Translations under genes and position numbers: made by a program
The notes under the pieces: model-generated
The model's database searches: none
What the model was told of the DNA's origin: nothing
Seen by the model: the letters and a program-made list of their open reading frames with translations, nothing else
From: Microcoleus sp. FACHB-831
GTDB lineage: Bacteria; Cyanobacteriota; Cyanobacteriia; Cyanobacteriales; FACHB-T130
Length of the DNA stretch: 64,000 nt
Reading direction: 5' to 3'
Assembly (NCBI RefSeq): GCF_014695585.1
Contig: NZ_JACJON010000084.1
Location: 62,001 to 126,000, forward strand
Shown here: positions 32,686 through 44,072 of the stretch, piece after piece
Numbering within the stretch: the first letter of the stretch is position 1
Layout: each line of letters begins with the position of its first letter

Positions 32686-33268
32686 GCTTTAACGGTCGCG
32701 CGATCGCTTTCTATGCTTGGTAATGCAGGCGACATTTTATGCAGGCAAATTTAGGATGCTATTTTAAAACTTATGCATCCCTGCCTAGTCTATTGGCGTA
32801 TTACTCATTATGGCTGGGTGTACTTAAGTCTTTTGTGTAAAGTTTCAAGCAAATGCCTTTTTGCGCTAGCTAAGTGTTATATCAGTTAATACCATTAATG
32901 GGATCGTTAATATGGACATTTTAAAAAAGATGCGTAATTTCTAAGGGAACAACTTTTTTGTCATGCGGGGCAACATAAATGGAGCGTAGGCGAAGCCTTC
33001 GCAATAGCTAGAATTTTGCAGATTCTAGCTAAGTCTATCGCGAGCGCTAATGCTCGGTTAGAGTTAGGCAGAAATTACACAATAGCGTACAAATGCCTAA
33101 GTTTTGTCTAAGTCAATTTAATCTATCCCCATAAGCTTAGGGGTTTTTTCTTAGAGAAGGGAAGTATATATGTGTTTTATAACACACAAGATATGCACCT
33201 AAAATGCTAAACTGTCCAACTAACTGACTCCACGTTAAGTGCTGCATTTTCATGCAGTGGGGTACTTT
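32686..33268. other. Intergenic region with repeats and an orphan terminator
   Basis: This 583-bp gap lies between the divergent permease gene and the first gene of the sensor array. It contains a GGCGAAGCCTTCGC-type palindrome near 32985-33001, an AGCTAGAAT/ATTCTAGCT inverted repeat (33007-33030), a plus-strand terminator (33127-33149) and a GTGTT/AACAC hairpin near 33172. No reading frame was found. The terminator implies plus-strand transcription starting inside this gap. Confidence 0.55.
33127..33149 (+). terminator. Plus-strand intrinsic terminator upstream of the diguanylate cyclase gene
   Basis: CCCC, a bulged A, then TAAGCTTA and GGGG form a hairpin, followed by six T residues (33144-33149). 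It ends 119 bp before the first array gene. No plus-strand gene lies before it in this gap. It therefore ends either a small RNA or a regulated leader transcript. Confidence 0.7.
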
Positions 33269-34369
33269 GTGCCGAACAGATTTTTCTCACCCCAGGTGTG
33301 GTTCCAAGTGAGCGATCGCTACCTCTGTTTAGAGTCCACGCTCCAAGAACTTTCGCTTCACGATTTCCAGGTTGAATCGCATATTACTCTGGGTAGAGAG
33401 GTTAACCAAACCTTAGAAGCCAATCCCCTCCTCCCAGGCGTGATTTTGGCAGGGCAAGGCCAGTTTGTGGGGATGATTTCACGACGGCGATTTTTAGAAT
33501 ACATGAGTCGCCCCTACGGACTAGAACTGTTTTCCAAGCGACCAATTGAGTGTTTGTATCGTTCGGCGCAAACTGAAACATTAGTTTTTGCGGGCAATAC
33601 TCTAATTGTGACAGCGGTGCGGCACTGTTTGCAGCGCTGTGCAGAGTTACTCTACGAACCGATTGTGGTAGAGGTAGCGTCTGGGGTTTATCGATTATTA
33701 GACGTGCATGAATTATTGCTTGCCCAGTCGCAAATTCACGAACTGGCAACCGAACTGGTTACTCAACTCTATCGAGATCTCGAAGATGCAAACGCGCAGT
33801 TACGCCGTCTCGCTAATTTAGACGGGCTGACTCAAACGGCAAATCGGCGCAGGTTTGACGAGTATCTCGATCAACAGTGGCGGTGTATGGGGAGGGATGA
33901 GCAACCGCTTTCTCTAATTATGTGTGATGTTGATTTCTTCAAAAAATACAACGACACTTACGGACATCAATCAGGTGATGATTGTTTGCGGCGGGTTGCT
34001 GCTGCTATTAGGGAAGTAGCTAACAGACCGATGGATTTAGTTGCTCGTTACGGAGGGGAAGAATTTGCAGTTGTTCTGCCAAATACGTCGCTTTTGAATG
34101 CAATTAACTTAGCAGATAAAATTAGGTTAGCAGTAACAGCGCTGAAAATTGCCCATATTAAGTCAGCAGTAAGCCCCTATGTCACTCTTAGTTTGGGGGT
34201 CTCCAGCACATTACCCAATCCAGATGCCCAGCCTGCGACTTTGATTGCGACGGCAGATGAGGCTCTGTATCAGGCGAAAAAGGCAGGGCGCAATAGGTGT
34301 ATAGCAATTGAGGAGAGCAATCGCTTCTTCCTCAGTTCATCCGTGAGCCAGATGCAGCTCCCCGACTAA
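33269..34369 (+). CDS. Diguanylate cyclase with the array's shared N-terminal sensor-like domain
   Basis: The product is 366 residues from the GTG at 33269 (GGGG about 6 nt before; aligned with the start of the paralogue at 38216). The frame is open to 33239. Residues about 10-150 are the domain shared by all four array genes: [45 protein letters not shown] and LYEPIVVEV. It resembles a pair of CBS-like motifs. A short coiled coil leads to a GGDEF domain (about 190-355) with active-site GGEEF. The product-inhibition site RPMD lies exactly five residues before it. NLDGLTQTANRRRFDEYL begins the domain. It should make c-di-GMP and be feedback inhibited. It heads the array. Confidence 0.9.
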   Translation: MPNRFFSPQVWFQVSDRYLCLESTLQELSLHDFQVESHITLGREVNQTLEANPLLPGVILAGQGQFVGMISRRRFLEYMSRPYGLELFSKRPIECLYRSAQTETLVFAGNTLIVTAVRHCLQRCAELLYEPIVVEVASGVYRLLDVHELLLAQSQIHELATELVTQLYRDLEDANAQLRRLANLDGLTQTANRRRFDEYLDQQWRCMGRDEQPLSLIMCDVDFFKKYNDTYGHQSGDDCLRRVAAAIREVANRPMDLVARYGGEEFAVVLPNTSLLNAINLADKIRLAVTALKIAHIKSAVSPYVTLSLGVSSTLPNPDAQPATLIATADEALYQAKKAGRNRCIAIEESNRFFLSSSVSQMQLPD

Positions 34370-34784
34370 AACAATATATTTATACTGTTTGCTCTAGCAC
34401 TTTTCTTCCGGGTTCAATATAGCTGACCTCCCTTGATGTGCTAGTTTATCTCTTCTGGGAAATTAGATGTGTAAAAATTTTTATATGTCTGTCTATGCCA
34501 CACTATTTTTCAATGCCTATGTAAAAGGTAGCATACCTACTATTTATCTATTTAACGATAAAATTTTATCTTTCTATACCTAACGAGCATTTGGTATTTT
34601 TTAATACTTATTGGCTAGAAACTTAGTACTAAGTATATTAATTTTTATTTAAATTAATATTAGTAAACATTTTTAAGCCAAAATATTAATAGGTAATATT
34701 TTATTTCAAAAAGATATACTATGTTTTTCTAAAAGTCAGGTAAGCTGGCCTTAGAACCTATAGCGATCGCGCAACCGTCGTGAT
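34370..34784. other. AT-rich intergenic region
   Basis: The 415-bp spacer before the second array gene is very AT-rich (34480-34720 especially) and has no reading frame. It is large enough for a separate promoter for the kinase gene. No terminator with a GC-rich stem was seen. Confidence 0.4.
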
Positions 34785-36233
34785 GTGGCAGAAGGACCCG
34801 TGTCTAATATTTATCCTCAAGATCTCTCTCTAGAGTCAACCCTCCAACAACTTTCACTTTATAATTTTCACATCCAAAATTCGCGTATTTGCCAGGAAGT
34901 AGCGCAGAATTTTGAAGCGAATCCCCTTCTACCTGGAGTCATTTTGATAGAAGACGGGCAATTTGCAGGAATGATTTCGCGGTGGCGTTTTTTTGAACAA
35001 CTCAGCCGCCCTTTCGGAATAGACATTTTTCTAAAAAGACCTATAAAGTCTTTGCAGCGCTTAGCTGGTAGTGAAACTTTGATACTCCCCGGCGATACAT
35101 TAATTGTGGCGGCTGCAAAGCAGTCTTTGCAACGGCCACCTAAATTACTTTACGAACCTATCGTGGTGGAGCTAGAACCTGGCGTTTATCAATTAGCAGA
35201 TATACACCAATTACTGGTAGCCCAGTCGCAAATTCACGAACTAACAACTCATCTGCTAGACGAGCAAACTAGAGCCAAGATGATGCAATCAGAAAAAATG
35301 GCTAGTTTGGGACGAATGCTGGCTGGAGTTGCCCATGAAATTAGAAATCCAGTTAACTCGATTTGTGGCAATTTAGATTTCTTGACAACCTACTGGAAAA
35401 ACCTGATTAACCTTGTATTAGCTTACGAAGAAGAAGTCGTACACCCATCCCCGCGACTTGTAGGACTTAAAGAAGAAATTGAACTTGACTTCTTAATAGA
35501 AGATTTGGAAAAAATAATGAAAAGTATGAAAATGGGAGGGGATAGATTAACAAAACTCGTTGCGGGTCTGCGAAATTTCTCCCATATGGATGAGTTAAAT
35601 CGTCAGCCAATTGATATACATGAGTGTATTGATAGCACGTTGGTGATTTTGAGCAATCCTCTCAAACAGGGGATTAAAGTAATAAAAGATTATGGCGATT
35701 TACCACCAATTAATTGCTATTCAGGCCAAATGAGTCAGGTATTTATCAATATAATCAGCAATGCCATTGATGCTCTAGAAGAAACAAAAGGAAAGAATAA
35801 AAACGGGAGTATTGTAGCTTTTAAAGAAGAAGACATAAGAAGCGATCTATTACCTACGATCTGGATTAGCACGTATATTCTAGACTCTCATGATGCTGTA
35901 ATTAGGATTGCTGATAATGGGCCTGGGATACCACCAGAAATTCAGGCGCGGATTTTTGATACTTTTTTTACTACTAAGCCAGTGGGAAAGGGGACGGGGC
36001 TGGGGTTGGCTATTTGCCATGAAATTGTGACGCAAAAGCATGGCGGGCAGTTGTTGATGCGATCGCGTGGCCTCTGTTCAGGGCAATCTTGCAGCCTCTA
36101 CCCAGGAGACTCGCGCAGCGTCTCTAGAGGAGAATTGCGTAGTGCATCGGAGACCCAATTATCTAGAGACTCGGAAGCAGTTTTTCAGGGGGATGTGGGT
36201 ACTGAGTTTGAGATTCGGTTGCCGCTGGTTTAA
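34785..36233 (+). CDS. Histidine kinase 1 of the array, with shared N-terminal domain
   Basis: The 482-residue product repeats the shared domain (about residues 12-155: [54 protein letters not shown]), then a coiled coil. The kinase module has the H-box SLGRMLAGVAHEIRNPVN (about 180-197), N-box [14 protein letters not shown]1 box [12 protein letters not shown] and an intact [17 protein letters not shown] lid. All catalytic features are present. A stretch near residues 427-470 (RSRGLCSGQSC to SRDSEAVFQG), just before GTEFEIRLPLV, is an in-frame repeat insertion absent from the paralogues. The start is a GTG at 34785, with another at 34800. No membrane segment: cytoplasmic. Confidence 0.9.
   Translation: MAEGPVSNIYPQDLSLESTLQQLSLYNFHIQNSRICQEVAQNFEANPLLPGVILIEDGQFAGMISRWRFFEQLSRPFGIDIFLKRPIKSLQRLAGSETLILPGDTLIVAAAKQSLQRPPKLLYEPIVVELEPGVYQLADIHQLLVAQSQIHELTTHLLDEQTRAKMMQSEKMASLGRMLAGVAHEIRNPVNSICGNLDFLTTYWKNLINLVLAYEEEVVHPSPRLVGLKEEIELDFLIEDLEKIMKSMKMGGDRLTKLVAGLRNFSHMDELNRQPIDIHECIDSTLVILSNPLKQGIKVIKDYGDLPPINCYSGQMSQVFINIISNAIDALEETKGKNKNGSIVAFKEEDIRSDLLPTIWISTYILDSHDAVIRIADNGPGIPPEIQARIFDTFFTTKPVGKGTGLGLAICHEIVTQKHGGQLLMRSRGLCSGQSCSLYPGDSRSVSRGELRSASETQLSRDSEAVFQGDVGTEFEIRLPLV
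36075..36182. repeat. In-frame palindromic-repeat insertion in kinase 1
   Basis: Between the ATP lid and the final strand of the kinase, about 100 bp consist of elements such as AGCGTCTCTAGAGGAGA and GAGACTCGCGCAGCG, matching a cyanobacterial interspersed palindrome type (GAGACGCT-like). The paralogue at 37965-38015 has a shorter version (GCGTCTCTAAGGGAGA). The reading frame is kept through the insertion. Confidence 0.6.
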
Positions 36234-36694
36234 TCTGTAAACTGCATATTTAAACCTTCAAAAGGGGTTGATAAAGGTGAGGCGATATGTATTTAGCGCC
36301 TTAATTATTTTTATATAGCTACTTCTTTAAATCTCTACATTGTCATCTAAATAAAATTCACGCTTGCCTGCGCGGTCTTTATTCAAGTCCAATATAGACC
36401 GCGATCGCCCAACAAACACTAGCGATTTAGTCCTCAGAATATGTTTCGTCACCAATGGATAATAGGAGTAAACACATACTATTTGACCAACACTTATAAT
36501 TGTTAGCACGCTCAAAACTTATATCTTTTTTACAGGTAAAGTTAAGTTTTAGTTAAATAAAGATTTAATCCGAGTTAACAAGTAAATATACCTAAGTTTC
36601 TAGTTATTTTATTGTAGTCTTAAGAAAATAATCTAGTGCTAGACTAAATCTTGCATCTTTCTATACAAACTCCAGGAACTGATTGAGGTTTGCT
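36234..36694. other. Intergenic region between kinases 1 and 2
   Basis: This 461-bp AT-rich spacer has no convincing gene; a 62-codon minus-strand frame at 36327-36515 lacks conserved features. GAGG lies 7 nt before the next ATG. The spacer could contain a separate promoter for the second kinase. Confidence 0.4.
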
Positions 36695-38056
36695 ATGTTT
36701 GCCCTGCAAGAGCCATGTCAGGAGTTATTTGCTTTGCAAAGCTGTGAGACGCCCAAGCTCAGTTTAGAGTCAACTCTCCAAGAACTGCCACTATACGATT
36801 TTCATATAGAATCCTCAAGTCTGGGGAAAACACTCGCTCAAACATTTGAAGCCAATTCCCTCCTCCCCGGAGCCATCATCACAGACCAACAGCAATTTGC
36901 TGGTATGATTTCGCGGCGAAGATTTTTAGAACAAATGAGCCGCCCCTATGGTCTGGAGCTATTTTCCAAACGGCCAATTAAGTCTTTATATTGCTTTGCC
37001 AGCAGCGAAATTTTGATACTTCCTGGCAATACATTAATTGTGGCAGCAGCAAAACAATCTTTGCAACGCTCGGCAGAGTTACTCTATGAACCTATTGTAG
37101 TAGAGCTAGAACCTGGGGTTTATAGATTAGTAGACGTACACCAATTACTCGTAGCGCAATCAAAAATTCACGAATTGACTACCGAGATGCTGGATGAGCA
37201 AACCCAAGCTCAGATGATGCAAACTGAAAAAATGGCTAGCTTGGGACGCATGGTTGCTGGCGTTGCCCATGAGATAAGCAATCCAGTTAACTGCATTAAT
37301 GGAAATATCAGCTTTCTATCAAACTACTGTAAAGATTTAATCGAATTGATGTCAGCTTATGAACAATTTTCAAGCGTTGCATCGGAAGTTGCTGAAGTAA
37401 AAGAAAGAATAGAAATTGATTTTCTTCTAGAAGACCTGCCCAAAGTGCTGGAAAGTGTCAAAGTTGGTACAGAACAATTAATTAAAATTGTTTGGGGGAT
37501 GCGAAATTTCTCTCACATGGATGAGGCAAATCGTCACGAAGTTAACATACATGAATGTATTGATAGCACGCTACTAATTCTGAATAACCGCCTCAAACAT
37601 GGGGTCGAAGTTATTAAAAACTATGGAGAGTTGCCGCCAGTGAGCGGCTATTCAGGTCAGTTGAGTCAGGTGTTTGTAAATATTATCAGTAATGCTATTG
37701 ATGCACTGCTGGAGAAAGCAGAGTTGCCAGCAACGGGGAAGATAGCTTTCCAACCCCAGATTGAGATTACTACAGAAGTTAAGACAGCTTCAAATCAGTG
37801 CTGGGCGATGGTAAAAATTGCTGATAATGGGCCTGGTATACCGCCCGAAATTAAGGCGCGGATTTTTGAAACCTTCTTTACTACTAAGCCAGTGGGTAAG
37901 GGGACGGGGTTGGGCTTGGCTATTAGCCATCAAATTGTGACTAAAAAGCATGGGGGACAATTGCTAGTGCGATCGCGTAGCGTCTCTAAGGGAGAATCGC
38001 CGTCTGAATGGGGAACTGAGTTTGAGATCCTACTGCCGCTGGTTAATACCAAGTAA
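36695..38056 (+). CDS. Histidine kinase 2 of the array, with shared N-terminal domain
   Basis: The product is 453 residues from the ATG at 36695 (GAGG 7 nt before); the frame is open to a TTG at 36683. The shared domain (about residues 20-160) is closest to those of the cyclase and kinase 1: [63 protein letters not shown]. The kinase module is complete: [43 protein letters not shown] and [17 protein letters not shown]. It has no receiver domain and no membrane segment. A short repeat-derived segment precedes the end ([11 protein letters not shown]). The phosphotransfer partner is not encoded next to it. Confidence 0.91.
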
Positions 38057-38215
38057 TTTGGTAGAGCATGGGAATTTAAGGTGAAATTAATATATGCAGG
38101 GTTGTCGCTGCACCCGCCTAGCATCCAATAAACCAGAGGTGTATGCACGCGAGATAGGAGACGAGCAAAAGAATAAGATGATAGTCTAGGGAGTATGAGC
38201 ATTTTTAGGCATTGA

Positions 38216-39586
38216 GTGCCAGTGCAAAACAGATTTGTATCACCTCCGAAGTTATTTCAGGGGATCGATCGCGACCTCTCTATAGATTCAACCCTGCGAG
38301 AACTGCCGCTCTACGATTTTCAGGTGGAAATTAGCTGCCAAGGCGTAGACGTAGCTCGTGTTTTTGAGAAGTATCCCTTGCTGCCAGGAGCAATCTTGGT
38401 GGATAAGGGTGAGTTTTCGGGTATGATTTCGCGGCGTTGGCTTTTGGAGTACCTGATCCGTCCCCACAGACTAGAGCTGTTTTTGCACAAACCGCTTCAG
38501 GTTCTTTACAGGTACGTTCGTTCTGAAGTTTTGATACTTCCCGACAGCACGACAATTTTGGCTGCTTCCCACCAAGCACTGCGGCGCTCGGTCGAACTCC
38601 GAGGCGAACCAGTCGTGGTACAAGTGGAACCAGACAAGCATTTTTTATTGGACTTTCAAGAATTAAATATTGCCTCTTGGCAAATCCGAGGCATAGAAAC
38701 TCAGGTAAGGTACGAGCGCACGCAAGCTCAAATGATTCAAAGCGAGAAAATGGCTAGCTTGGGTCGGCTAGTGGATGGCGTAGCACACGAAATTTTAGAC
38801 CCGGTTAGTTTTATTTGGGGCAACTTAACATACATCTCAACTTATAACGAACAGATCCTCGAATTGGTTTCTGCTTATGAGGAATATCTCCCCCAAATAC
38901 CAGTAGAAATAGCTCAGTTAAAAGAAGATATTGAATTAGATTTTTTACGACAAGATCTGCCGCGAGCAATTGGCAGTATCCGGGCGGGAGCAGAACGTTT
39001 AAAAAAGCTGGTTACGAGCTTGCAAAACTTTTGCCATATTGATGACGTTTATCCTAAGCCCGCAGATTTACACGCCATACTTGATAGTATTCTTTTACTT
39101 TTGAAAAGCCGTTTAACCAGCGATATTGAAGTTGTAAAAGAATATGGAATTTTGCCACCAGTGCAATGCTACGCTGGTCAAATTAATCAGGTTTTTATGA
39201 ATATCATCACCAATGCTATAGATGCATTAATCGATCGGGCAGTTGCTCAGAATTTTTCTAAAGATTTCAGGTATTCCGGACAACCAGAACCAGCTGATAA
39301 ACCTCGGATTGAAATTTCAACGCAGGTATCTTCGCGCAAGGCAAGTACGTCAGAAACTTCTGACGTTCGCTGGGTTTCTATTCGCATTGCAGATAATGGG
39401 CCTGGGATGTCTTTAGAAATGCAGCAGAAAATTCTTGAGTCTTTTTCTATTGAGAAACGTGCTGCTAAGGAAACAAGTTTGGGGGTTAGTTATCAGATTG
39501 TGACCGCCAAGCACGGGGGGCATTTTATGTTTCAATCACAGCTTGGAGCGGGGACAGAATTCCAGATTTGGTTGCCTTTGGTTTAA
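38216..39586 (+). CDS. Histidine kinase 3 of the array, with a degraded ATP lid
   Basis: The 456-residue product carries the shared domain in its most divergent form (about residues 18-150: IDSTLRELPLYDFQVE, YPLLPGAIL, GMISRRWLLEYLIRPHRLEL, GEPVVVQVEPD). The H-box keeps its His but has HEILDP instead of HEI-NP. The N-box (MNIITNAIDALID) and G1 box (IADNGPGMSLEM) are kept. The lid, [15 protein letters not shown] in its paralogues, is here SFSIEKRAAKETSLGV, so the G2 glycines are mostly lost. It may be a weak or inactive kinase, perhaps a partner subunit for the other two. GTG at 38216 is the start. It lies 160 bp after kinase 2. Confidence 0.88.
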   Translation: MPVQNRFVSPPKLFQGIDRDLSIDSTLRELPLYDFQVEISCQGVDVARVFEKYPLLPGAILVDKGEFSGMISRRWLLEYLIRPHRLELFLHKPLQVLYRYVRSEVLILPDSTTILAASHQALRRSVELRGEPVVVQVEPDKHFLLDFQELNIASWQIRGIETQVRYERTQAQMIQSEKMASLGRLVDGVAHEILDPVSFIWGNLTYISTYNEQILELVSAYEEYLPQIPVEIAQLKEDIELDFLRQDLPRAIGSIRAGAERLKKLVTSLQNFCHIDDVYPKPADLHAILDSILLLLKSRLTSDIEVVKEYGILPPVQCYAGQINQVFMNIITNAIDALIDRAVAQNFSKDFRYSGQPEPADKPRIEISTQVSSRKASTSETSDVRWVSIRIADNGPGMSLEMQQKILESFSIEKRAAKETSLGVSYQIVTAKHGGHFMFQSQLGAGTEFQIWLPLV

Positions 39587-39929: not shown

Positions 39930-42900
39930 ATGGCTAAAAATATTACAAAAAGTTATGTCTGGGCGCTCAAAGTTGCGGTTGTCAGCTTTTCATTTCCCCT
40001 CCTATTGACTGGCAATAGCTGGGCGCAAAAACAAGGAAATGGCGAACAGGTAATAAAAATTGCCCAAACAAATTCTCCAACAGCGACAGCTTCACCTAGT
40101 CCGGCAGCTTCACCAACAGCGGCAGCTTCCCCTAGTCCCGCATTGTCGCAAGAGGCTGAAATCGCCTCCTATATCCAGAAGTTTAGAACTGACGATTTTC
40201 GGGTTTACCAAGATGCCTTAAGAGACTTGGAGAGAATTGGCACGCCAGCGGTTCCCGCACTGATCGAAGCATTGCAGGACAAGGATGTGCGGGTGCGCGT
40301 GTATGCTGCCGATGTGCTGGGAGCGCTGGGTTCCAAGGCGCAAGAGGCAGTCCCGCCTCTCGCGAAAGCACTCAAAGACCCCGATCAGTACGTGAGAGCA
40401 AGTGCTGCGGAAGCTCTGCATGAAATTGGTTCCCAGGCTAAAGACGCAGTAACCGAGCTGATCGGAGCGCTCAAGGACGAAGATAGGTACGTGCGCTACA
40501 GTGCCGCAGATGCACTGGGACGAATTGGGTCAGAGGCGAAAACGGCAGTTCCAGCTTTGATAGAAACGCTCAAGGATAAAGATCCTTACGTGCGCTACAG
40601 TGCCGCAGATACCCTAGTGGCAATAGGTGAGGATGCAAAAGACGCAGTAAAGCCGCTAATTGAAACCCTCAAGGATGAAGATGAATACGTTAGAGCAGGT
40701 TCGGCAGCTGCATTGGGAGCGATAGGTGAGGATGCAAAAGACGCAGTGCCGAAGCTCATGGACACGCTAGCAAAAGACAAAAGTGGGTTCGTGCGATCGC
40801 GTGCTGCTAATGCTCTAGGAGATATCAATTGGCAAAAGAAATCTACCGTCCCGGCACTAATCGAAGCACTACAAGACAAAGATCAAAGAGTACGCTCTGC
40901 TGCTGCAATTGCCATAGGTGAAATCGGTGCAGACTCGCCAGCTGCTATCCCTGCGTTGATCCAAGCGCTGCAAGAAGACGATGACAAAGTGCGCTCAAGT
41001 GCTGCTGAAGGTGTGGGAGAGATTGCCGGAAAACTTCAAGACAAAGCAACCAAGCTATCTATCCCAGCCTTAAACAGCATTATTACGGACTTAGAAATAG
41101 CCGTAAAAGTTCTGGAAGACCCTAAAGCTAACTTCAAAGACTCACAAATAGCACAGTTAAAACGGCCTCTTGTAGGAATAAAAGCCGAAAAAGAAGCCCG
41201 CTTATCAGATAGATTCTCCCAGTGGCTGGCGAAGAATCCATTCTGGACGGGAGCGTTGCTTTACTTTACCTTACTCCCATCTACCTGGTGGCTGCTTCTG
41301 CGGTTGCGTCCCCTGTGGCTGTTGGCGCTCAACGAAGCACTGGAACCCTTCTCAAACATTCAGCTAACAGGTTTTATGAGAGGGACGAAGTTATCGCTCC
41401 GCGCCATTTTGTTGATTAGTTTCTTTACTCACAACTCCAGAGTGCTGGATGCGTGGGTGGCTAAATATATCAAAGCAGCTAGAGAAGAATTTGGGCAAAA
41501 AGATGCAGTAAGCGATCGCTCAATTCACATCCCAGTTCCAATTACCATAGACGGCAAACCCGACACACAACTTACTGCCTCGGATTTGCAGACAAAGTTC
41601 AACCAACAGCAATGCAATTTGGTTATCTGGGGAGAAGGTGGATCGGGTAAGACGAGCATAGCTTGTCAAATGGCTAAATGGGCGATGGCGGAAAATCAGG
41701 CAGATCGACTTTGCGATCATCTAATGCTACCCATCCTCATAGAAGAAGATTTAGACATTAAAGTAGACAAGAAAGCTGACAAAAAAGCTGAAAAGACCAA
41801 AACTCCACCTTTCATAGATGCAATTCGAGGGCATCTCCAAGACTTAATCAACGAAGTAAAACCGATTTCCGAGGAACTGCTCGAACGACTGCTCCAAGAG
41901 CAGCGCATTCTAGTGATTGTCGATCGATTCTCGGAACTAAACGATGCTACGAGAGGAGAAATCAGACCTGAGTCTCCTGAATTTCCGGTTAACTCCCTAG
42001 TAATTACCTCGCGGTTTGAGGAAAAGCTGGGTCGAGTGAACAAAACCATCCTCAAACCCCAACGGATTGAAGGCACAAACCTCGCCTCATTCGTGGAAGC
42101 TTATATTAAGGAACAAGGCAAGCGCGATAAGTTTACGGATTTGGAATTTTTCGACGGGTGCGGACAACTTTCGCTGAGGATTGGTAGCCGAAGCGTGACG
42201 CTGCTGTTGGTGAAAATGTACGCCGAGCAGATGATCCAGGCTAAGGAAAAGGATGTAGTAGGCGAATTGGCAAGTGGTATTCCTGATTTAATGTTGACTT
42301 ACTTAAACGAACTCAACGGGGATATATCAGATGGTAAGTTGGACAACCGCACCATTCACAAAGATGCCAAAGCTTTGGCGTGGGAATGCTTGAAGACAGA
42401 CTATCGCGCTGGAGTGGTAAAGCGTAAAGATGCGATCGCGACATTAGGCGATAAATCTGAAGATCGTCTCAAATATCTCGAAAACCGTCTGCGCTTGATC
42501 CAAACTGTTGGCCCTGCTCAAGACCAAATCCGCTTCACCCTCGACCCTCTGGCTGAATATCTCGCTGGTTTGCAGCTATTAGAACTTAATGGCGACAAGG
42601 AGGAAGCGTGGCGCGAGTTCCTCGACAAAACAATGGCCAAAACTGATGCACAAGGGGGAACTCAAGGTTTGTTGCTAGCGGTACGAGATTGCTGTGTGGC
42701 TTACGGTCGCGACGCAAAAGTGCCTAACTTTGTTGTGGAAGAACTGGGTGTAATGACTGGTCTTACTCCAGCGCCTGAACCAGCTCAAGTAATAGAGGTG
42801 GCTGAGGAGTTGGCGGTTGCAACTGTGGTAGAAGAACCAGCCTTAGCTGAGATAACGTCAGCAGAACAAACCCAACCTGCTGCAATTAACGAAAACCCAG

Positions 42901-43205
42901 AAAGCGTTAATACTACTAACGACGCGATCGCTACAACTGAGGTAGAAAAAGACCCCTCTTCTAGCCTGCTTCAACCTGCTGCGGTTTATGAAAAGCCTGA
43001 AACCGTCAACACAGCTAACAACGCGATCGCTAAGGTTGAGGTAGAAACAGGTTCTGACTCAAGTGCGATTGTCGCTGAGTCAGTGCAACCTCAACCATCT
43101 TCAACGATCGACCCGCCGCCGCCAATCGTCACCATTATCGGCGATTTGGTTGCTAAAACCGCGTCAGACAAAGCTTCTGACTCACCAAGCGTCGCCCCAG
43201 CCTGA
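39930..43205 (+). CDS. Exported HEAT-repeat protein with membrane segment and NACHT-type NTPase
   Basis: The 1091-residue product has a signal peptide (about residues 1-32, VVSFSFPLLLTGNSWA), a Pro/Ala/Ser linker, then about nine HEAT repeats (about 75-375; units such as VRVYAADVLGALGSKAQEAV). A membrane region follows (about 435-463, FWTGALLYFTLLPSTWWLLL). The second half is a STAND/NACHT-type NTPase: Walker A WGEGGSGKTS (about 567-576), Walker B RILVIVDRFSELN (about 657), sensor-like LVITSRFEE, and a helical region to about 930. The C-terminal 150 residues are acidic, Ala/Val/Glu-rich and repetitive. The layout places HEAT repeats outside and the NTPase inside the membrane. STAND NTPases usually act as switches for signalling or defence. 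Role unknown. Confidence 0.88.
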   Translation: MAKNITKSYVWALKVAVVSFSFPLLLTGNSWAQKQGNGEQVIKIAQTNSPTATASPSPAASPTAAASPSPALSQEAEIASYIQKFRTDDFRVYQDALRDLERIGTPAVPALIEALQDKDVRVRVYAADVLGALGSKAQEAVPPLAKALKDPDQYVRASAAEALHEIGSQAKDAVTELIGALKDEDRYVRYSAADALGRIGSEAKTAVPALIETLKDKDPYVRYSAADTLVAIGEDAKDAVKPLIETLKDEDEYVRAGSAAALGAIGEDAKDAVPKLMDTLAKDKSGFVRSRAANALGDINWQKKSTVPALIEALQDKDQRVRSAAAIAIGEIGADSPAAIPALIQALQEDDDKVRSSAAEGVGEIAGKLQDKATKLSIPALNSIITDLEIAVKVLEDPKANFKDSQIAQLKRPLVGIKAEKEARLSDRFSQWLAKNPFWTGALLYFTLLPSTWWLLLRLRPLWLLALNEALEPFSNIQLTGFMRGTKLSLRAILLISFFTHNSRVLDAWVAKYIKAAREEFGQKDAVSDRSIHIPVPITIDGKPDTQLTASDLQTKFNQQQCNLVIWGEGGSGKTSIACQMAKWAMAENQADRLCDHLMLPILIEEDLDIKVDKKADKKAEKTKTPPFIDAIRGHLQDLINEVKPISEELLERLLQEQRILVIVDRFSELNDATRGEIRPESPEFPVNSLVITSRFEEKLGRVNKTILKPQRIEGTNLASFVEAYIKEQGKRDKFTDLEFFDGCGQLSLRIGSRSVTLLLVKMYAEQMIQAKEKDVVGELASGIPDLMLTYLNELNGDISDGKLDNRTIHKDAKALAWECLKTDYRAGVVKRKDAIATLGDKSEDRLKYLENRLRLIQTVGPAQDQIRFTLDPLAEYLAGLQLLELNGDKEEAWREFLDKTMAKTDAQGGTQGLLLAVRDCCVAYGRDAKVPNFVVEELGVMTGLTPAPEPAQVIEVAEELAVATVVEEPALAEITSAEQTQPAAINENPESVNTTNDAIATTEVEKDPSSSLLQPAAVYEKPETVNTANNAIAKVEVETGSDSSAIVAESVQPQPSSTIDPPPPIVTIIGDLVAKTASDKASDSPSVAPA

Positions 43206-43604
43206 GCCTAGCGAACGCAACCAACCGACGGTGAGCGAGTAGAGCAAACGATAAGTAGGGCAGTGCGATCGCACTGCCCTACTCTATAGCGTGAAGTAGA
43301 ACGTTGTTCCTTTTTCATGTAAATAGGGGAATGGGGGATCGGGGATTGGGTTGCCAGTCTCATATCCCCATTCCCCGTAGGCTAGCTGAATTAATAATAA
43401 CTTTGCTGTACCATCGCTACAAAATCAGACTCTCAAATATTAAACTTTAATAATTTACTACTACTAAGGATCTATATAGAAAGGTAGATTAAATAGTAAA
43501 AATACATAGCTAACTTTATAGGAAAATGTAGCTCTATCAATAGGTAATAACCTTTGGTTGAGAGTTTTACTTATTTACAAAAATATTATCAAAAAGAGGT
43601 TGTA
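43206..43604. other. Intergenic region with two inverted repeats
   Basis: After the HEAT-NACHT stop come a 30-bp HIP1-centred palindrome (43254-43283) and a second inverted repeat of the GGGGAATGGGG / CCCCATTCCCC type (43326-43336 and 43366-43376), a frequent cyanobacterial spacer element. The rest is AT-rich and includes the promoter of the small exported protein gene. Confidence 0.6.
43254..43283. terminator. 30-bp perfect palindrome centred on HIP1, possible terminator
   Basis: AGTAGGGCAGT and ACTGCCCTACT arms extend the HIP1 octamer symmetrically to 30 bp, 49 bp after the HEAT-NACHT stop codon. Position suggests termination, but only a weak T-rich tail follows. It parallels the 24-bp palindrome at 5903-5926. 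Confidence 0.6.
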
Positions 43605-44072
43605 ATGGGTATTCAAAAAAGGAAGATTTGGGCAGGTACGATAATATCGCTGTTGCTTTCGGCAGTAGCAGTACATCCGGCGATCGCTGAAGCACCTTCT
43701 GAGCCAGAAGCTACCCAACTGCAAAGCGGGACAAATACGCTTAAACCTGTCACGGGAACTATCACAAGTATTGTAGACGAGTTGGTAACGCTGGAAACTC
43801 GCAGCGGTACAACACAACAAATCTCAATTAAGCGCGAGGATTTGTCCCGGCTGGATTTACAGCGCGGAATGTATATTGCGGCGCTCTTAGATAGCAGGAA
43901 TACTGCTAGAAACGTCAGCGTTATAAAAGACAACATTGCTTCGAGAGCTATCACTTCGACAGATTCTACGAGAGGCGGCGATACAATAACTGGGGAAGAA
44001 CAGGTTCTTCCGCAAAGGAGAGCGGACACGCTACCTACTCTCGATGCGACAAAAAAACTCAGCAGAGAGTGA
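43605..44072 (+). CDS. Small exported hypothetical protein
   Basis: The 155-residue product starts at the ATG at 43605, preceded by GAGG; the longer open frame from 43554 would bury the signal peptide. The signal (KIWAGTIISLLLSAVAVHPA, cleavage after AIA near residue 28) is followed by a small beta-type domain (VTGTITSIVDELVTLETRSG, then QISIKREDLSRLDLQRGMY), which looks like a short OB/SH3-like barrel. The remainder is polar. It is probably periplasmic. It lies 400 bp downstream of the HEAT-NACHT gene on the same strand, and a link is only possible, not shown. Confidence 0.75.
   Translation: MGIQKRKIWAGTIISLLLSAVAVHPAIAEAPSEPEATQLQSGTNTLKPVTGTITSIVDELVTLETRSGTTQQISIKREDLSRLDLQRGMYIAALLDSRNTARNVSVIKDNIASRAITSTDSTRGGDTITGEEQVLPQRRADTLPTLDATKKLSRE

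What the first reader, a model, noticed from the sequence alone, without database searches (positions are those of the whole stretch)
39930..43205. Signal peptide - HEAT repeats - membrane segment - NACHT NTPase in one protein
The order implies HEAT repeats outside the plasma membrane and a STAND/NACHT-type switch inside (Walker A GEGGSGKTS, Walker B VIVDRF). Most bacterial NACHT proteins known in defence or signalling are soluble with the sensor at the C-terminus. A transmembrane arrangement with an exported repeat sensor would be a receptor-like design. The acidic repetitive tail of about 150 residues is a further unknown.
Basis: partly seen in the sequence, partly recalled or inferred. Interest (0 to 1): 0.7.

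Follow-up and report, generated by a model that had tools for sequence, protein, structure and literature searches.

The report
Membrane-spanning NACHT receptor with exported HEAT
A cyanobacterial gene encodes what looks like an immune-type NTPase switch inside the cell, wired through the membrane to a repeat-built binding arm outside it, and in some relatives that kind of arm is evolving as fast as an arms-race sensor would.

Summary
Window 39930-43205 (+) encodes 1091 aa: export signal, S/T/P/A-rich linker, eight 33-aa HEAT repeats, Trp-rich membrane segment, NACHT-type NTPase, NCH4 helical domain (PF22731, above cut-off), and a 146-aa acidic low-complexity tail. The layout recurs in a sporadic family (12 of 100 genomes of the order, 14 of 292 of the phylum, both counts including this genome); signal plus internal membrane segment occur in 23 of 27 members against 14 of 231 neighbouring proteins. 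A Rhizobium plasmid relative puts a Ycf48-type beta-propeller where the HEAT array sits. New here: in two of the family's ortholog trios the HEAT arrays diversify on one helix face (pN/pS 1.0-2.4 at phases chosen in the other trio) while the NTPase is conserved. These phases match five of the six positions randomised in alphaRep artificial binders, the closest solved structures to this array (Z 24). A third trio shows purifying selection; the window gene has no close ortholog, so its own regime is unknown. Sister genomes carry an L,D-transpeptidase gene at its site. Best reading: a membrane-anchored NLR-like receptor sensing an extracytoplasmic ligand. Topology is well supported by prediction; ligand, output and defence role are inferred.

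The parts
39930..43205 (+). whole gene, 1091 aa
39930..40025 (+). predicted Sec signal peptide, aa 1-32, Ser-Trp-Ala cleavage site
   Evidence: no dedicated signal-peptide predictor was available
40026..40241 (+). Ser/Thr/Pro/Ala-rich linker and lead-in helix, aa 33-104
   Evidence: sequence
40242..41033 (+). HEAT array, eight 33-aa repeats, aa 105-368, alphaRep-like, predicted extracytoplasmic
41241..41297 (+). Trp-rich transmembrane segment aa 438-456
41307..41324 (+). juxtamembrane RPLWLL motif, aa 460-465 (P461 invariant in 16 aligned members)
41391..41459 (+). second hydrophobic segment and RVLDAWV motif, aa 488-510
41631..41657 (+). Walker A GEGGSGKTS, aa 568-576
41910..41936 (+). Walker B LVIVDRFSE, aa 661-669
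42006..42014 (+). T-S-R motif aa 693-695, invariant (sensor-1-like; label recalled)
42534..42572 (+). FTLDPLAEYLAGL, aa 869-881 (winged-helix-like region; label recalled)
42639..42770 (+). NCH4 (PF22731) aa 904-947, above Pfam cut-off
42771..43202 (+). low-complexity acidic tail (net charge -19 over aa 946-1091), low model confidence; holds a degenerate duplicated unit seen by eye
43254..43283 (.). 30-nt perfect palindrome centred on GCGATCGC, possible terminator
   Evidence: sequence printed

Best explanation
A single-gene, membrane-anchored NLR-like receptor. Shown by sequence and comparison: signal peptide, HEAT array, one strong membrane segment, NACHT-type NTPase with intact Walker motifs, and NCH4 domain, conserved as a unit across scattered cyanobacteria. 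Inferred: the chain is exported through Sec until the Trp-rich segment stops it, leaving the HEAT superhelix in the periplasm or thylakoid lumen and the NTPase in the cytosol. The HEAT array binds a protein ligand on its helix-B face, as designed alphaRep binders do. Binding releases the NACHT switch to exchange nucleotide and oligomerise on the membrane. No partner gene accompanies the family, so the output is most likely intrinsic, through clustering of the conserved membrane and juxtamembrane segments, with loss of membrane integrity as the likeliest result. The sensed object is probably a phage, a mobile element or a competitor product, or a host target that these disturb. The last three steps are inference.
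For: Anatomy. Layout conserved: signal plus internal TM in 23 of 27 members vs 14 of 231 neighbours. Sensor swap: the Rhizobium plasmid relative (27% identity over 77% of the query) has a signal, a Ycf48/BNR propeller, TM and NTPase. NCH4 search of 98 phylum genomes found 4, all already in this family. Sensor-like evolution in relatives: ectodomain dN/dS 0.51-0.62 vs NTPase 0.14-0.25 in the exported-HEAT trio, with 7-10 repeats; C-terminal HEAT dN/dS 1.05-1.14 vs 0.09-0.25 in another trio; 0.54 vs 0.12 in one more pair. Cross-chosen phases give pN/pS 1.00-1.57 and 1.48-2.42. Other HEAT proteins between two of the same genomes: 0.03 and 0.15. Shared phases 12, 15, 16, 19, 23 lie within the alphaRep variable set. 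Sporadic and often broken. Gene absent at the same site in sister genomes.
Against: No experiment, no phage phenotype, no defence-island context for the window gene: its neighbours are ordinary, and no relative was found in phage or viral collections. One exported-HEAT trio (L037/L038/L061) is under strong purifying selection, 0.05-0.08, as a housekeeping sensor would be. Window NACHT score is below Pfam's cut-off, and a profile search of solved structures gave mostly short P-loop matches. Positive-inside bias is weak (45 K/R before, 62 after). Low Cys in ectodomains (0.2% vs 1.4%) is not decisive, because the cytosolic HEAT arrays of L045, L060 and L046 are also Cys-poor (L051 less so). The AlphaFold2 model of the NTPase is unusable (mean pLDDT about 42).
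Confidence: 0.5

Rival explanations
1. A conserved envelope or thylakoid housekeeping sensor: the exported HEAT array docks a host protein and the NTPase regulates assembly or stress signalling, with no role in defence.
For: Trio A (L037/L038/L061), with the same layout, is under purifying selection throughout. The gene lies beside two-component kinase genes in the window, in the L037 trio and in L039. Ycf48, the propeller in the Rhizobium relative, is named by Pfam and NCBIfam as a photosystem II assembly factor.
Against: Present in 12 of 100 genomes of the order and 1 of 6 of the family. The kinases occur in 59 of 100 genomes with or without it, so the linkage is probably ancestral synteny. 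Two trios and one pair show rapid array change.
Confidence: 0.25
2. A membrane-effector NLR in which the membrane segment, in the usual N-terminal effector position, is the output (pore or depolarisation) and the HEAT array is a tether or regulator rather than an outside sensor.
For: Four members (L045, L060, L046, L051) have almost no ectodomain and a C-terminal HEAT array, and one (L040) has no HEAT motif match, while all keep the membrane segment, the RVLDAWV-type motif and the NTPase. P461 and L506/D507/W509 are invariant in 16 aligned members.
Against: It does not explain why most members keep a signal peptide and a long exported array, nor the exported propeller in Rhizobium. It can also be combined with the main reading.
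Confidence: 0.2
3. The N-terminal segment is not an export signal and the whole protein is cytosolic or peripherally attached.
For: The membrane segment fails a Kyte-Doolittle cut of 1.5, and HEAT proteins of this type are usually cytosolic (recalled).
Against: Octanol score 14.9; signal and TM conserved through the family while sequence identity falls to 23-53%.
Confidence: 0.05

Closest known systems
Bacterial NACHT (bNACHT) NLR-related anti-phage proteins with NCH domains (PMC12169576, passages read; Kibby et al. 2023 not held, recalled)
   Same: NACHT-type NTPase followed by an NCH helical domain; single-gene architecture
   Different: bNACHT25 and bNACHT32 carry NCH1 and an N-terminal nuclease; none of the passages read describes a signal peptide and an exported sensor
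Fungal NLRs with highly conserved, positively selected repeats (PMC4986451 and PMC12222747, passages read)
   Same: NACHT plus repeat domain with repeat-number polymorphism and hypervariable positions on a ligand face
   Different: those are described as intracellular with C-terminal repeats; here most arrays are N-terminal and predicted exported
DGR-diversified STAND/NACHT putative antigen sensors of multicellular bacteria (PMC10907252, passages read)
   Same: bacterial NACHT proteins with a diversified sensor, some predicted periplasmic
   Different: diversity there comes from a retroelement acting on a C-type-lectin domain; here it lies in HEAT repeats, and no diversity-generating element was looked for systematically
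alphaRep artificial HEAT-like binders (PMC3754942, passages read)
   Same: Z 24, 49% identity to the window's array; the same variable positions
   Different: engineered, soluble, no NTPase
Ycf48 / PSII_BNR beta-propeller proteins
   Same: the Rhizobium relative's N-terminal half
   Different: no NTPase named in those families

Membership tests
NACHT / STAND NTPase | Walker A and NACHT-type Walker B | tested here: met
   G571, G573, K574, T575, D665, S668, E669 invariant in 16 aligned members
NACHT / STAND NTPase | Pfam NACHT (PF05729) above curated cut-off | tested here: inconclusive
   window 17.7 vs 26.7 bits; 1 of 9 relatives above cut-off, L045 at 30.3; 19 of 20 modules match at E<=0.01
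NCH4 (PF22731) NACHT proteins | NCH4 above curated cut-off | tested here: met
   window 50.6 vs 27; 9 of 9 relatives scanned above cut-off; the Rhizobium relative had no NCH4 match
bNACHT anti-phage NLR-related proteins | phage protection dependent on the NTPase | not testable with these tools
   needs infection assays
bNACHT anti-phage NLR-related proteins | recognisable effector domain | tested here: inconclusive
   no catalytic effector domain in the Pfam tables; a membrane effector is possible but unproven
Single-pass receptor | export signal plus one later membrane segment | tested here: met
   by hydropathy and a cleavage-site motif only
Single-pass receptor | experimental topology | not testable with these tools
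   needs reporter fusions or protease accessibility
NLR with diversifying repeat sensor | repeat array evolving faster than the NTPase at surface positions | tested here: inconclusive
   met in 2 trios and 1 pair of relatives, not met in trio A; not testable for the window gene, which has no close ortholog

The most novel reading that the evidence does not exclude
A class of bacterial transmembrane NLRs that survey the extracytoplasmic side with rapidly diversifying, alphaRep-like HEAT binding arms (or swapped-in beta-propellers) and signal across the membrane to a NACHT switch: a bacterial counterpart of a cell-surface immune receptor, with natural repertoire variation on one helix face.
Probability: 0.35. 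Interest if true: 0.87.

Novelty: new variant of a known kind. Interest (0 to 1): 0.64.

Why it matters
Known NLR-type immune switches are described as intracellular. If the exported HEAT arm is the sensor, bacteria have joined a NACHT switch to an outside recognition surface, which would allow response before or during phage adsorption or contact. The diversifying helix face coincides with the positions protein engineers randomise to make binders, so ligand fishing with the natural arrays is directly feasible.

Tried and rejected
Functional linkage to the neighbouring histidine kinases: rejected as the default, because the kinases occur in 59 of 100 genomes and keep the same order in sister genomes that lack the gene. 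No other recurrent dedicated neighbour was found.

Simple vertical descent at this site: the window gene and the same-site genes of the L037/L039 group held together as one clade are disfavoured (p-AU 0.0113; the group was chosen after the first tree had been seen, so treat it cautiously). The deep tree is poorly resolved.

Phage or viral origin: no relative in three viral-contig scans or the phage collection.

Structure of the NTPase part: two AlphaFold2 jobs with two-sequence alignments gave an unusable model outside the HEAT array. A profile search of solved structures found mostly short P-loop matches; one, an NB-ARC protein (9h2l), spans 158 profile positions at E 0.0029. The one structural comparison covered only the HEAT part.

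Amphipathic second helix: moments are low in most members, so a re-entrant or buried helix is as likely.

Sampling: 27 rows were used for the alignment and first tree. Dropped before counting: L054, L057 and L058 (broken, partial or only distantly matched), L056 (fragments), L063 and L065 (broken or truncated plasmid copies). The signal/TM count used 27 proteins, leaving out L041 (split N-terminus) and including L063_6; its four misses are L036, L040, L052 and L053. The AU-test tree used 25 rows, without L055 and L064. dN/dS was computed for 11 pairs in six ortholog sets: trio A (0.05-0.08) and L047/L049 (0.14) were not raised, B, C and L053/L052 were, and L050/L048 was saturated. Fisher tests were run on 4 of the 6 B and C pairs (p 1.9e-5 to 0.0076); pairs within a trio are not independent, and recombination between repeats can inflate such counts. 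One search was a failed first version with a wrong repeat pattern; its numbers are not used. Hot phases were set at entropy >=1.4 for C and the ten highest for B.

Full report
Observation. The open reading frame at 39930-43205 (+) gives 1091 residues. In order it has a hydrophobic N-terminus ending in a Ser-Trp-Ala site at residue 32; a Ser/Thr/Pro/Ala-rich linker; eight HEAT repeats of 33-34 residues; a Trp-rich hydrophobic segment at 438-456 (octanol score 14.9); an NTPase with Walker A GEGGSGKTS and Walker B LVIVDRFSE; the Pfam domain NCH4 (NACHT C-terminal Helical domain 4); and a tail of 146 residues with net charge -19. The membrane segment is missed by a Kyte-Doolittle cut of 1.5 but is strong on the octanol scale. 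Pfam's NACHT model is matched at 17.7 bits, under its cut-off of 26.7; NCH4 is matched at 50.6, over its cut-off of 27.

Family. Relatives occur in 12 of 100 genomes of the order and 14 of 292 of the phylum, the window's own genome included in both counts, and in 1 of 6 genomes of the family, which is the window's own. Searching NCH4 alone in 98 genomes of the phylum finds 4, all already in this set. So in this sample NCH4 and this family coincide. One relative lies in a MAG labelled Planctomycetaceae and one on a conjugative Rhizobium phaseoli plasmid. Searches of phage and viral collections found none. Several copies are broken: fragments in G092, a split and partial copy in G233, an internal deletion in L055, a split N-terminus in L041, and stops within the Nostoc plasmid copy.

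Topology. A hydrophobic N-terminus with a cleavage-type motif together with an internal membrane segment is found in 23 of 27 family proteins and 14 of 231 neighbouring proteins of at least 250 residues. A cleaved signal followed by a stop-transfer segment puts the HEAT array outside and the NTPase inside. In a cyanobacterium 'outside' may be the periplasm or the thylakoid lumen, and nothing here separates the two. The Rhizobium relative carries a BNR propeller (PSII_BNR E 3.2e-59; NCBIfam Ycf48 6.7e-64) in place of the HEAT array, behind its own N-terminal hydrophobic segment. Weaker signs: K/R counts of 45 before and 62 after the segment. Cys is 0.2% in ectodomains and 1.4% in the cytosolic parts, but the cytosolic HEAT arrays of L045, L060 and L046 are also Cys-poor.

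Architectures. Most members have the N-terminal array. L045, L060, L046 and L051 have a short ectodomain and a C-terminal HEAT array. L047 and L049 have HEAT on both sides. L040 has no HEAT motif match. The Nostoc plasmid copy ends in an FGE-sulfatase domain. The constant part is the membrane segment, the RPLWLL and RVLDAWV motifs, the NTPase and NCH4; 35 columns are invariant over 16 aligned members that include the Rhizobium one.

Sensor-like evolution in relatives. Three genomes of one genus carry three paralogs each, at syntenic places for the pairs compared. In trio A (L037/L038/L061) all parts are under purifying selection. In trio B (L042/L059/L062; same layout as the window protein) the ectodomain has dN/dS 0.51-0.62 and 9, 10 and 7 repeat motifs, while the NTPase has 0.14-0.25. 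In set C (L045/L060/L046; C-terminal HEAT) the array has 1.05-1.14 and the NTPase 0.09-0.25 for the two pairs compared. In L053/L052 the ectodomain has 0.54 and the NTPase 0.12. L047/L049 is not raised (0.14 vs 0.06), and L050/L048 is saturated. I then chose variable phases of the repeat in one set and tested them in the other. B at C's phases: pN/pS 1.00, 1.57, 1.42 against 0.51, 0.37, 0.47 elsewhere. C at B's phases: 1.87, 1.48, 2.42 against 0.93, 0.79, 0.87. A: 0.03-0.08 at hot phases. The phases hot in both sets are 12, 15, 16, 19 and 23, one face of the second helix. Fisher tests on four of the six pairs gave p 1.9e-5 to 0.0076. As a control, two other HEAT proteins of two of the same genomes have dN/dS 0.03 and 0.15. 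These counts are simple, pairs share sequences, and exchange between repeats may inflate them.

Link to binder design. The window's array is closest in the Protein Data Bank to alphaRep artificial binders (phmmer to 5.5e-88; structural Z 24.3, 49% identity over 264 residues). Their variable positions in the printed repeats are phases 11, 12, 15, 16, 19 and 23. The library paper lists six randomised positions 18, 19, 22, 23, 26 and 30, which have the same spacing (PMC3754942, passages). All five hot phases shared by sets B and C fall in this set. alphaRep positions were modelled on natural variability, so the coincidence shows that this is the natural variable face of such repeats; the excess of amino-acid change in B and C is a separate observation.

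Locus. The gene lies between a histidine-kinase gene and a small signal-bearing protein followed by rimM. In sister genomes G039, G062, G011 and G081 the same flanks enclose an L,D-transpeptidase gene (YkuD; in G011, and by its GGDEF match G081, a large sensor gene as well), and no remnant of the NTPase gene was detected. The L037 trio has its own copy between the same kinases and rimM, yet a tree holding it together with L039 and the window gene as one clade is disfavoured (p-AU 0.0113). This suggests gain, loss or replacement at one spot. The kinases themselves occur in 59 of 100 genomes and are not specific partners. Neighbour clustering found no dedicated partner gene.

What is known. Passages read in PMC12169576 describe bNACHT proteins with NCH1 and a nuclease. 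PMC4986451 and PMC12222747 (passages) describe fungal NLRs with repeat-number polymorphism and positively selected repeat positions. PMC10907252 (passages) describes NACHT sensors diversified by retroelements, some predicted periplasmic. PMC7159879 (passages) describes membrane-associated conflict systems. Ten paper searches showed in their listings no description of a signal-HEAT-membrane-NACHT protein or of hypervariable HEAT arrays in bacterial NLR-like proteins. The founding bNACHT paper is not held, so prior mention there cannot be excluded.

Verdict. The anatomy is real and conserved. The receptor topology is well supported by prediction. Diversifying HEAT faces in two sets of relatives support a recognition role, and trio A shows that this is not universal. 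Function, ligand and output are open.

Noticed in passing
window 33239-39586: A GGDEF protein and three tandem histidine kinases share an N-terminal region; relatives of the last kinase occur in 59 of 100 genomes of the order.
   Followed up: partly
L085:6738-7409 and L087:6960-7598: Sister genomes carry a YkuD L,D-transpeptidase where the window has the NACHT gene: a variable spot between a histidine kinase and a small signal-bearing protein.
   Followed up: partly
L045, L060, L046, C-terminal HEAT arrays: Cytosolic HEAT arrays with dN/dS near or above 1 and length differences between close genomes.
   Followed up: yes
L064:5532-9332: Rhizobium phaseoli conjugative plasmid protein with a Ycf48-type beta-propeller, membrane segments and the same NTPase module.
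   Followed up: partly
L063:7248-10565: Nostoc plasmid copy broken by stops, ending in an FGE-sulfatase domain; a MoxR ATPase, an SAV_2336-type protein and an XcyI restriction enzyme gene lie nearby.
   Followed up: partly
L065: Scytonema plasmid with two HEAT-bearing pieces of this family among transposase genes.
   Followed up: no
L047, L049: Members with HEAT arrays on both sides of the membrane NTPase.
   Followed up: partly
window 43554-44072: Small protein with a signal-like N-terminus and no Pfam match, nor in its relative in L085; retained beside rimM in sister genomes.
   Followed up: no
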